Made by a program: the position numbers and the translations under genes. This document shows, in pieces, positions 8,051-11,114 of a stretch of 41,501 bases of DNA; the stretch's first letter is position 1; each line of letters begins with the position of its first letter. Where the stretch lies: positions 1 to 41,501 of the forward strand of contig WSNJ01000006.1 of the NCBI GenBank assembly GCA_013316045.1, written 5' to 3'. This stretch comes from Clostridia bacterium. Lineage in GTDB: Bacteria; Bacillota; Clostridia; Christensenellales; Pumilibacteraceae. Below the pieces are notes generated by a model. The model was given only the letters and a program-made list of their open reading frames with translations. It was not told where the DNA came from and searched no databases.

Positions 8051-8968
8051 ATGAAGTGGCAGAAAATTACGGTAAGCACGACGCACGAATTCGAAGAACT
8101 TGTTTCTTCGTGTATGCTCGACTTCGGGTCCGAGGGCGTGAGCGTTACGGATTATGCGGAGTTCCGCGACGCCGTTAAAAACAGAATATGGGACTATATA
8201 GACGAAAAATTGCTTGAAAAAGATGACGGAACGGTTCTTGTTTCGGGCTATTTTCCGTTGGATTTCGACAAAACGACGCTTGAAAGCGAGCTTGCGGAAA
8301 TCAAAGAGCGCTCGCCGTTTTGCACGGGTTCGCTTGAAACGCAAGCCGAAACCGTCGATTCCGCTACGTGGGAGAACGTCTGGAAAGATTACTATAAGCC
8401 GATAAAGAGCGGTAAACTGACAATAGTTCCGAAATGGCTCGAAAACCCCAATCCCGACACCGTACCCGTGTACATCAACCCGGGAATGGCATTCGGAACT
8501 GGAAGCCACGAAACGACGGGAATGTGCGTCGAACTTATGCAGCTTGCCGATATTAAGGGCAAGACTGTTGCGGACGTGGGGTGCGGAAGCGGAATACTCG
8601 GTATTTGCGCGCTTACGCTCGGAGCGGAAAGTTGCACGTTTGTCGATAACGACGAGAACGCCGTGGCGGCGACGAAAGAAAATTGCGGATATAACAAGGT
8701 CGGAGACCGCGCCGAAATAGTTCTCGGCAGTTTGCTCGACGGCGAAAGCACAGAGTTCGACGTTGTTTTGGCTAACCTTACCGTTGACCTTTTGCTTATG
8801 CTTAAAAACGGTATAAACACAAATTTGAAGAAAGGCGGCAAGGCTGTTTTCAGCGGAATAATAAACGGACGTGAAAGTGAAATTGCACAGGCGTTCGGAA
8901 AAGAGTACAGGCTTATAAAAGCCGAAAAGCGCGGAGAATGGCACGCGATGCTTTTTGAAAAGTTATGA
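8051..8968 (+). CDS. prmA: Ribosomal protein L11 methyltransferase
   Basis: PrmA trimethylates ribosomal protein L11 using S-adenosylmethionine. The product has 305 residues. The N-terminal L11-recognition domain spans about residues 1-130. The linker motif NPGMAFGTGSHETT, diagnostic for PrmA, leads into SAM-binding motif I VADVGCGSGILGI. The catalytic-domain motif LANLTVDLLL corresponds to the NPP-like motif of the family in modified form. The ATG is preceded by GGAAAGGAAAG. It sits directly after dnaJ, as in many Clostridia and Bacilli, and overlaps rsmE by 4 nt (ATGA), indicating translational coupling. Confidence 0.95.
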   Translation: MKWQKITVSTTHEFEELVSSCMLDFGSEGVSVTDYAEFRDAVKNRIWDYIDEKLLEKDDGTVLVSGYFPLDFDKTTLESELAEIKERSPFCTGSLETQAETVDSATWENVWKDYYKPIKSGKLTIVPKWLENPNPDTVPVYINPGMAFGTGSHETTGMCVELMQLADIKGKTVADVGCGSGILGICALTLGAESCTFVDNDENAVAATKENCGYNKVGDRAEIVLGSLLDGESTEFDVVLANLTVDLLLMLKNGINTNLKKGGKAVFSGIINGRESEIAQAFGKEYRLIKAEKRGEWHAMLFEKL

Positions 8969-9684
8969 GAAAATTTTTCGTAGACAATTTAACCGAAAAA
9001 GCAGTTCTGACGGGAGCGGAGCATAAACACCTTTCTGTCGTTTGCAGAGCCAAAAAAGGCGACAGAATAGTACTATGCGACGGATACTACGACGGAAACT
9101 ACGAGATTACGGATATAAAAAAGGATTGTACGCGTCTTTTGCTGACGGATAAGACCGCAAACCGTTCCGAAACGACGGCGGACGTCGATTTGTATTTCTG
9201 TTCGCTCAAAGGCGATAAGAACGATTTTATAGTGCAGAAATGTACGGAACTCGGCGTTAAGAATTTTTATCCCGTTATTTCGGAATACGTGCAGAACGGT
9301 GCAAAAAATGTCAATACCGAAAGACTTAAACGTATTGCCGAAGAAGCCGCGAAGCAGTGCGGCAGGGGCGCGTTGCCGAAAATTCATTCCGCCGAGTCAT
9401 TTGACGGCGCCGTCGGAAAAATTAAGGAATATCCGCTTGTCGTTTTCCCGTACGAAAGCGAAAAGAATCTCGATATAAGGTCGTTTTTGCAGGGCGCGGG
9501 AAAAGCCGATAAGATAGCCGTGCTCGTCGGTTGCGAAGGCGGTTTCTCGAAATCGGAAGTCGATATGCTGAAAGATGCGGGTATAGCTTCGGTAACGCTC
9601 GGTAACAGAATTTTGCGCGCCGAAACGGCTTGCATTGTTACCGCGGCGGTCGTTATGTACGAAAGGGGCGAGATGAATGTTTGA
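8965..9684 (+). CDS. rsmE: 16S rRNA (uracil1498-N3)-methyltransferase
   Basis: RsmE is a SPOUT-class methyltransferase that modifies U1498 of 16S rRNA. The product has 239 residues. It starts with the PUA-like domain (HLSVVCRAKKGDRIVLCDG), and the knotted SPOUT domain carries KCTELGVKNFYPV, EEAAKQCGRGALP, VGCEGGFSKSEVD and LGNRILRAETA, all family signatures. The ATG overlaps the prmA stop. The last codons and the TGA stop (9682-9684) lie inside a 12-bp-stem hairpin that belongs to the structured element downstream, so the C-terminus (MYERGEMNV) may have been remodelled by that element. Confidence 0.95.
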   Translation: MRKFFVDNLTEKAVLTGAEHKHLSVVCRAKKGDRIVLCDGYYDGNYEITDIKKDCTRLLLTDKTANRSETTADVDLYFCSLKGDKNDFIVQKCTELGVKNFYPVISEYVQNGAKNVNTERLKRIAEEAAKQCGRGALPKIHSAESFDGAVGKIKEYPLVVFPYESEKNLDIRSFLQGAGKADKIAVLVGCEGGFSKSEVDMLKDAGIASVTLGNRILRAETACIVTAAVVMYERGEMNV

Positions 9685-9806
9685 AAGTACATTCATCTCG
9701 GGATACGGGCTACGTTCGTCCCGCCGCCTTGGTCATTTATGAGAAATAAACTCCCGTCGGCGGCGAGCCGACAGTTGCCCGTCTACCGCGCGACTGTACT
9801 TTCAAA
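9669..9806. repeat. Inverted-repeat-bounded structured element between rsmE and mtaB
   Basis: Two perfect 12-bp inverted repeats share bases. CGAGATGAATGT (9669-9680) pairs with ACATTCATCTCG (9689-9700) around an 8-nt loop. TTTGAAAGTACA (9680-9691) pairs with TGTACTTTCAAA (9795-9806), enclosing about 100 nt. Inside lie CGCCGCC (9722-9728) complementary to GGCGGCG (9759-9765) and a hairpin GTCGGC/GCCGAC (9756-9772). No coding potential or T-tract terminator is seen. The two 12-bp pairings exclude each other in RNA. It may be a small non-autonomous mobile element (MITE-like) or an RNA switch; I do not recognise it. Confidence 0.6.
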
Positions 9807-9836
9807 AAAATTGTGGCAGGATGTAATGGCATATTT

Positions 9837-11114
9837 ATGAAATTCGTAGTTTTCACGCTCGGTTGCAAAGTCAATATTTACGAAGGACAGGCGATGATTT
9901 CGCGCCTTGAAAGCAAGGGCTTCGATGCTACCGACAAACTCGTACCCGCAGATTATTATATCATAAATACTTGTTCGGTTACGGGCGAAGCGGACCGTAA
10001 ATCGCGTCAGACAATCAGCAGGGTAAAGAGATTGAATCCGAAAGCCCGAATTTACGTTTGCGGTTGCAGTTCGCAAAACGACGGCGATATTTATGCCGAG
10101 AAAGACGGCGTTAAGATTGTAGGCGGCGTTGCGGATAAAATGAGTTTTATTGATAAAATAGTCGAAGACGTCGGGAACGCCGAATCGTCGGGAATGCTCG
10201 CGGACGACGTAAGAGCGTCGGAGCTTCCGTCCGTCTACGAAGACAATCTTTTTCCCGCTCACACGAGAACGCGCGGACTTATCAAAATTCAGGACGGCTG
10301 CAACAGATTCTGCTCTTATTGCATAATTCCGTATTTGCGAGGAAGAAGCCGCTCGCGCAGTATAGAAAGTATTGTTTCCGAAGCTGAAAAGGCCGCCGAA
10401 ATAACGCGGGAAATAGTGCTTACGGGCGTGGATATATCGGCGTTCGGTCTGGATACGGGCGAGAGTTTTACGGGGCTTATCAAGGCTCTCGGCAGCGTTA
10501 AAGCGCGTAAGCGTATAGGCTCGCTCGAATGTAGCGTTATAACGCGCGAGTTTTTGGACGCAATGGCGGAAAACGGATTCTGCGCTCACTTTCATTTGTC
10601 GATGCAGAGCGGAAGCAAGGGCGTGCTTGAAAAAATGAACAGGCGGTATACGCCCGAAGAATTTATCGGGAAAGTCGAATTTATCCGCGAAATTATGCCT
10701 TTTGCTGGTATTACGACAGACATAATAGCCGGTTTTCCTACCGAAACGGAAGCTCAGCACCGAGAAACGCTCGAAACGGTGGAGAGAATAAGATTTTCCG
10801 ACGCTCATATATTTCCTTACAGCGAGCGCAAAGGCACAAGGGCGGCGCGCTTGCCGCAAGTAGATAAATCCGTAAGAATCCGCAGAGCGGCGGAGCTTAG
10901 CGAGTTGCGCGACAAACACAAAACCGAGTTTTTGATAAAGAATTCGGGCACCGTCCGCGAAGTTTATCTCGAAGAAAAAGACGGCGAGTACAACGTAGGA
11001 TATACGGATAATTACATAAAAGTCTACTCGACCGCGGAAGAAAAAACCTGTACAAAACACATTCTGAAAGAAATTTATAAAGATGGAATAAAAGGAGAAA
11101 AAATTTATGAGTAA
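9837..11114 (+). CDS. mtaB: tRNA (N6-L-threonylcarbamoyladenosine37-C2)-methylthiotransferase
   Basis: MtaB is a radical SAM methylthiotransferase that converts t6A37 to ms2t6A37 in ANN-decoding tRNAs. The N-terminal UPF0004 domain carries the cluster cysteines in TLGCKVN, NTCSVTGEADRKSRQ and VCGCSSQ. The radical SAM motif CNRFCSYC follows in QDGCNRFCSYCIIPYLRGR, and a C-terminal TRAM-like region closes the 425 residues. The NTCSVTxxADxKSR form is that of MtaB rather than MiaB or RimO. I prefer ATG 9837 over GTG 9813 because homologues begin just before the KxxxxTLGC segment; the ribosome-binding site is weak for either. It overlaps the HIT gene by 8 nt. Confidence 0.93.
   Translation: MKFVVFTLGCKVNIYEGQAMISRLESKGFDATDKLVPADYYIINTCSVTGEADRKSRQTISRVKRLNPKARIYVCGCSSQNDGDIYAEKDGVKIVGGVADKMSFIDKIVEDVGNAESSGMLADDVRASELPSVYEDNLFPAHTRTRGLIKIQDGCNRFCSYCIIPYLRGRSRSRSIESIVSEAEKAAEITREIVLTGVDISAFGLDTGESFTGLIKALGSVKARKRIGSLECSVITREFLDAMAENGFCAHFHLSMQSGSKGVLEKMNRRYTPEEFIGKVEFIREIMPFAGITTDIIAGFPTETEAQHRETLETVERIRFSDAHIFPYSERKGTRAARLPQVDKSVRIRRAAELSELRDKHKTEFLIKNSGTVREVYLEEKDGEYNVGYTDNYIKVYSTAEEKTCTKHILKEIYKDGIKGEKIYE

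What the first reader, a model, noticed from the sequence alone, without database searches (positions are those of the whole stretch)
9669..9806. Structured element with two mutually exclusive 12-bp inverted repeats at the end of rsmE
The segment TTTGAAAGTACA (9680-9691) is shared by two pairings: as part of a local hairpin (9669-9680 with 9689-9700) and with a distal arm (9795-9806). The left arm supplies the rsmE stop codon. Perfect terminal repeats around about 100 nt of GC-rich foldable sequence look like a small palindromic mobile element; the competing pairings also look like an RNA switch controlling mtaB. I do not recognise the family.
Basis: partly seen in the sequence, partly recalled or inferred. 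Interest (0 to 1): 0.6.

Follow-up and report, generated by a model that had tools for sequence, protein, structure and literature searches.

The report
Hairpin DNA repeats behind stop codons
The odd inverted repeats at the end of rsmE are one of about 60 copies of an undescribed small mobile hairpin element that sits, nearly always facing the same way, directly behind the stop codons of core genes in this group of gut bacteria, and that keeps its folded shape while its sequence changes.

Summary
Window 9680-9806 is a 127-bp imperfect palindrome; its 12-bp ends are the family's terminal stem. The genome holds about 60 copies, seven related genomes yielded 210 more, and none matches Rfam or integron attC sites. 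Sequence varies widely (median core identity 66%) but pairing is kept: 21 of 30 core pairs change on both sides, and 37 terminal stems have 36 different left arms. Near-identical copies have unrelated flanks, and orthologous rsmE-mtaB junctions are empty, so it is mobile. Two features stand out. In this genome 59 of 60 copies lie on the upstream gene's strand, often 0-3 nt behind its natural stop codon (24 observed, 2.8 expected); an alignable sister species has an empty site whose reading frame matches through the stop. And the opposite (bottom) strand folds better in nearly all copies, while sense-strand mismatches are not RNA-like, so the conserved fold is probably single-stranded DNA. The mobilising enzyme is unknown; Y1 transposase and integron integrase were not found in this genome. 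The RNA switch for mtaB is not supported: the competing hairpin 9669-9700 is peculiar to this copy.

The parts
9680..9806 (+). whole element (type A, 127 bp imperfect palindrome), inserted at the 3' end of rsmE
   Evidence: ends match the terminal stem in other type A copies; absent from orthologous rsmE-mtaB junctions
9680..9691 (+). left terminal arm TTTGAAAGTACA; its TGA (9682-9684) is the rsmE stop codon
   Evidence: 37 type A copies have 36 different left arms, 87.6% paired against 53% in shuffles
9795..9806 (+). right terminal arm TGTACTTTCAAA, perfect complement of the left arm
9692..9701 (+). type A outer module, left side TTCATCTCGG (family consensus TTCATCGCGG)
   Evidence: comparison of copies
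9788..9794 (+). type A outer module, right side GCGCGAC
   Evidence: comparison of copies
9702..9787 (+). conserved structural core matched by covariance model R1 (91.9 bits)
9710..9715 (+). conserved interruption, left side CTACGT; pairs with 9772-9777 leaving T.T and T.C mismatches
   Evidence: CTACG invariant in 17 of 17 aligned copies
9772..9777 (+). conserved interruption, right side CAGTTG (family consensus CTGTTG)
   Evidence: GTT invariant in the 17 aligned copies
9733..9753 (+). apical module: 3x3 internal loop TCA/CTC and covarying hairpin TTTAT-GAGAA-ATAAA
   Evidence: pairs 36-40/47-51 covary (T-A to C-G and G-C)
9669..9700 (+). competing local hairpin (9669-9680 with 9689-9700), private to this copy
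8965..9684 (+). rsmE, 16S rRNA m3U1498 methyltransferase, full length
   Evidence: NCBIfam NF008709 matched over residues 1-237 of 239
9837..11114 (+). mtaB-like tRNA methylthiotransferase gene, start displaced from the rsmE stop by the insertion (GTG 9813 is in the same frame)

Best explanation
It is one copy of a non-autonomous mobile DNA element, recognised by shape rather than sequence. Shown: a 120-130 bp imperfect palindrome with well-paired but freely varying stems and conserved internal mismatches; dispersal; orientation; placement directly behind natural stop codons; better folding of the strand opposite the upstream gene. Inferred: an unidentified enzyme binds the folded single (bottom) strand, as integron integrase binds attC, and places it at gene 3' ends; structure is kept because only well-folded copies with the right internal loops are mobilised. 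Any effect on mtaB expression would be a side effect of the insertion.
For: About 60 copies in the own genome and 210 in seven related genomes. 21 of 30 core pairs change on both sides, 92% of cells paired, no shuffle of 500 as good; terminal 12-bp stem 87.6% paired against 53% shuffled. Copies 98-100% identical with unrelated flanks. Empty junctions; in G002/G019, same genus, coding sequence aligns through the stop TAA and the insert begins right after it. 59 of 60 same-strand; 24 of 56 are 0-3 nt behind the stop, 2.8 expected; 187 of 222 same-strand copies within -30..+12 nt over eight genomes. Bottom strand folds better in 59 of 61 (RNA) and 61 of 61 (DNA) own copies, 112 and 111 of 114 others. 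Sense-strand A.C exceeds G.T 142 to 75, against 0 to 15 in tRNAs. Not found in IMG/VR by pattern.
Against: No mobilising gene was found; no target-site duplication of 2-8 bp was seen. The bottom-strand energy advantage comes from shared internal loops, so the copies are not independent tests. The tRNA control is small (10 tRNAs). Orthologous genes in different genera carry elements more often than random (39 pairs, 8-20 expected), which could also mean selection for a function at those genes. Orientation is weaker outside the own genome (163 of 204), and in G012 about a third lie on the other strand. A DNA-level enzyme has no obvious way to see a stop codon.
Confidence: 0.6

Rival explanations
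1. An ERIC/RPE-like palindromic repeat whose copies act as RNA in the mRNA: after insertion behind a stop codon the hairpin sets stability or processing of the upstream and downstream messages, and that function keeps structure, orientation and place.
For: Sits behind stop codons in the sense strand, as I recall for ERIC in Yersinia, where co-transcription and an orientation-dependent RNase E effect are reviewed in PMC2229807. Recurs at the same genes in several genera, such as lysS, nusG and purH.
Against: Sense-strand stems carry A.C rather than G.U mismatches; the other strand folds better in nearly all copies; element sequences at the same gene in different genera are no more alike than random pairs; patchy among genera.
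Confidence: 0.2
2. The folded molecule is an RNA transcribed from the bottom strand (an antisense or trans-acting RNA), moved around by reverse transcription.
For: Bottom strand folds better and its internal loops are G.A-rich; sense-strand A.C is bottom-strand G.U. One genome (G012) has a retron-type reverse transcriptase beside a degenerate copy.
Against: No promoter-like site in 9600-9900; G.U on that strand is still far rarer than in tRNA stems; reverse transcriptase domain absent from G009 and G020, which hold 59 and 30 copies.
Confidence: 0.08
3. An attC-like recombination site used by a chromosomal tyrosine recombinase, that is, a scattered integron-like system.
For: Similar anatomy to attC: length, hairpin with conserved unpaired bases, variable stem sequence, bottom strand, directly behind a stop codon.
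Against: No integron integrase above cut-off; attC R boxes in 0 of 177 copies; no element near any tyrosine recombinase locus examined; host genes are core genes with natural ends.
Confidence: 0.07
4. An RNA switch for mtaB made by the two competing 12-bp pairings.
For: Both pairings exist and exclude each other.
Against: Element absent from other rsmE-mtaB junctions; competing arm absent from the other copies; no Rfam match.
Confidence: 0.03

Closest known systems
ERIC / IRU (enterobacterial repetitive intergenic consensus)
   Same: 127-bp imperfect palindrome, dispersed, next to stop codons with an orientation bias (bias recalled from De Gregorio 2005; mobility and orientation-dependent mRNA effect reviewed in PMC2229807)
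   Different: No TA or other target duplication, no ERIC consensus, another phylum; sequence varies freely while pairing is kept
Integron attC sites
   Same: Imperfect hairpin with conserved unpaired positions and variable stem sequence, bottom-strand fold (PMC2727003), directly behind stop codons (general knowledge)
   Different: No IntI, no R boxes, dispersed behind native core genes instead of in cassette arrays
Rickettsia palindromic elements (RPE)
   Same: 100-200 bp palindromes with 12-bp terminal repeats (PMC2229807); some type C copies here extend the reading frame by about 8 codons
   Different: RPEs lie inside reading frames; these sit at the stop codon
REP / REPIN with RAYT transposase
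   Same: High-copy palindromic extragenic DNA, structure matters
   Different: Much longer, and no Y1 transposase in the high-copy genomes G000, G001 and G009
BOX / RUP of Streptococcus
   Same: Dispersed hairpin elements of Firmicutes (BOX is modular too)
   Different: Different structure; no stop-codon rule known to me for BOX or RUP

Membership tests
Bacterial MITE / palindromic interspersed repeat | short, non-coding, palindromic, many dispersed copies | tested here: met
   about 60 own copies of 120-130 bp
Bacterial MITE / palindromic interspersed repeat | target-site duplication | tested here: not met
   no excess of 2-8 bp direct repeats at the ends of 143 copies; some palindromic repeats lack one, so this is filed only under the wide sense of interspersed repeat
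Bacterial MITE / palindromic interspersed repeat | parent transposase in trans | tested here: inconclusive
   only a few families tested
ERIC | ERIC consensus sequence | tested here: not met
   at least 8 of 22 mismatches to either ERIC primer in 177 copies
ERIC | TA target duplication | tested here: not met
   TA near both ends in 17 of 61; no duplication excess
ERIC | next to stop codons in one orientation | tested here: met
Integron attC | R boxes RYYYAAC and GTTRRRY | tested here: not met
   0 of 177 copies
Integron attC | integron integrase in the genome | tested here: not met
   TIGR02249: none above cut-off in 41 genomes
Integron attC | bottom strand folds with asymmetric unpaired features | tested here: met
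   bottom strand lower in 59-61 of 61 and 111-112 of 114
REP / RAYT | Y1 (HUH) transposase PF01797 | tested here: not met
   absent from G000, G001, G009
Rfam RNA family or riboswitch | match to a known family | tested here: not met
   chance-level matches only
Rfam RNA family or riboswitch | sense-strand G.U tolerance in covarying stems | tested here: not met
   A.C 142, G.T 75; tRNA control 0 and 15
Rickettsia palindromic elements | insertion inside reading frames, in frame | tested here: not met
   copies lie at gene ends; only a few extend the frame by about 8 codons

The most novel reading that the evidence does not exclude
A new class of mobile DNA that moves as a folded single strand recognised by shape, like an integron attC site but without an integron, and that is directed to stop codons, so that insertion leaves the upstream gene intact.
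Probability: 0.25. Interest if true: 0.85.

Novelty: new variant of a known kind. Interest (0 to 1): 0.58.

Why it matters
Dispersed palindromic repeats are usually recognised by sequence and placed by a short target motif. Here sequence is free, shape is kept, and the place is the stop codon of core genes, which is hard to explain by any known DNA target rule. If a folded-strand enzyme is behind it, it would be a second system of the attC kind, and a possible tool for inserting DNA without harming genes. Pumilibacter intestinalis, a cultured isolate, carries about 12 copies, so it can be tested.

Tried and rejected
Exact core pattern in GTDB genomes and IMG/VR found nothing, because stems vary; a pattern on the conserved interruptions found 46 stretches in named Clostridia MAGs and Pumilibacter, none viral. 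Tandem repeat search of loci that looked like arrays: none; they are a full copy followed by a half copy ending near the apical loop. Statistics of half copies by regular expression were too loose to use. Reverse transcriptase as mobiliser: absent from two high-copy genomes; the copy beside the G012 enzyme is degenerate and fits the copy density. Tyrosine recombinases: one only in G012, none near an element. Uniform insertion between genes does not give the stop-codon placement. Vertical descent at shared genes: element sequences there are no more alike than random pairs (0.615 against 0.597). Intrinsic terminator: no T run behind the element on the sense strand; one minus-strand match, not above shuffles.

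Full report
Observation. rsmE ends at the TGA inside the shared segment. The region folds far better than shuffles (z = -5.2).

A repeat family. A nucleotide search of the own genome (1.89 Mb, 130 contigs) with 9660-9815 found dozens of partial matches. Aligning 17 cores showed what they share: conserved interruptions (CTACG against CTGTTG; TCA against CTC) between stems whose sequence differs from copy to copy but stays paired. 21 of 30 pairs have changes on both sides, 92% of cells pair, and no shuffle comes near. A covariance model (R1) finds 61 distinct copies in the genome and patchy numbers in relatives: tens of copies in G001, G009, G012 and G020, none in several others of the same family. 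In 297 genomes of the order the family is strongest in the window's own family (Pumilibacteraceae, from the named Pumilibacter record) with weaker relatives elsewhere; in 391 genomes drawn from the class only one further weak match appeared. Named hosts include Pumilibacter intestinalis and uncultured Clostridia MAGs. Neither pattern was found in IMG/VR, and nothing matches Rfam.

Anatomy. Three outer modules occur. The window copy is type A: a 12-bp terminal stem, then TTCATC.CGG/GCGCGAC, then the core. Over 37 type A copies there are 36 different left arms, 87.6% of positions pair (shuffles 53%, maximum 62%), and every position but the last has several pair types. So 9680-9691/9795-9806 is the terminal stem of the element. 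The other repeat, 9669-9700, pairs element with flank and occurs in this copy only.

Mobility. Cores 98-100% identical lie in unrelated flanks. In relatives rsmE and mtaB mostly abut or overlap, and none of the junctions read carries the element. G002 and G019 (same genus) give an alignable empty site: the same frame through the stop TAA, then the element in G019 only. At another gene both carry an element at the same stop codon, with different sequences (60% identity).

Placement. In the own genome 59 of 60 copies lie on the strand of the upstream gene, and 51 of 59 have their left end within about -24 to +10 nt of its stop codon. 24 of 56 are 0-3 nt behind it; uniform insertion into the same gaps gives 2.8, and no simulation of 200000 reached the observed number. 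Upstream genes are core genes with natural C-termini: rpsL, nusG, tpiA, tkt, gdhA, hypA, spo0A, htpG, purH. Over eight genomes and 271 copies, 222 of 264 are same-strand and 187 of those lie within -30 to +12 nt (gene calls come from a simple codon-usage predictor of my own). Genes are shared between genera more often than expected (39 pairs, 8-20 expected), lysS in four genera; the element sequences at shared genes are not more alike than random. I read this as repeated insertion at favoured gene ends, or rapid replacement in place; selection for a function at those genes remains possible.

Which molecule folds. Sense-strand stems carry more A.C than G.T mismatches (142 against 75; distinct contexts 89 against 50, p = 0.001), the opposite of tRNAs (0 against 15). 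The bottom strand folds better in 59 of 61 own copies with RNA and 61 of 61 with DNA parameters, and in 112 and 111 of 114 others. Because copies share internal loops this is one property rather than many tests, but it points to the strand opposite the gene, as in attC sites (PMC2727003). G.T on that strand is still rare, which I take as favouring DNA over RNA; this is inference.

Enzyme. Not found. Y1 transposase is absent from G000, G001 and G009, integron integrase is nowhere above cut-off, reverse transcriptase is absent from G009 and G020, tyrosine recombinases show no association. The tests cover few families and the genomes are draft assemblies.

Conclusion. A real family of mobile hairpin repeats for which I found no description, unusual in its combination of free sequence, kept shape, bottom-strand fold and stop-codon placement. 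The nearest kinds are ERIC, RPE and, for the way it might work, attC; it fails defining tests of each.

Noticed in passing
L019, L020, L021, L022 (own genome C61, C103, C119, C25): A sister hairpin family shares the apical module and the type A outer module but has another middle (GAAATAGTGCGTTAAG ... CTTGCCTTCTCTTTCGCGCGACT).
   Followed up: no
own genome C25:10078, C35:3788, C66:15228, left arms: A separate short palindromic repeat (GGCGTTCGCGCTACGCGCTCGGCT) sits inside or beside the left arm of three copies.
   Followed up: no
L003, L004, L016, L397: Other interspersed repeats (GTCATTTCGACCGAGCGAAGCGAGCGGAGAAATC; GTCATTGCGAGGGAATTT...GCAATCTCATGC) often lie just behind the element.
   Followed up: no
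L007 1629-1690, L013 1630-1690, L016: Half copies made of the left arm and ending near the apical loop; in L007 and L013 directly behind a full copy of the same subtype.
   Followed up: partly
L254 (G012 C43) 1204-2301: Retron-type reverse transcriptase gene with a degenerate element copy, itself carrying another repeat, directly upstream.
   Followed up: partly
L033, L037, L054 (type C copies): The reading frame runs into the element and gains a short tail ending in GGAGTHI or GGADTHI before a stop inside the element.
   Followed up: no
window 9813-9837: mtaB has two possible starts behind the element (GTG 9813, ATG 9837) and no clear Shine-Dalgarno sequence before the ATG.
   Followed up: no
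G000:C53 (L259): A diverged reverse-transcriptase-like gene beside a large serine recombinase gene in the own genome.
   Followed up: no
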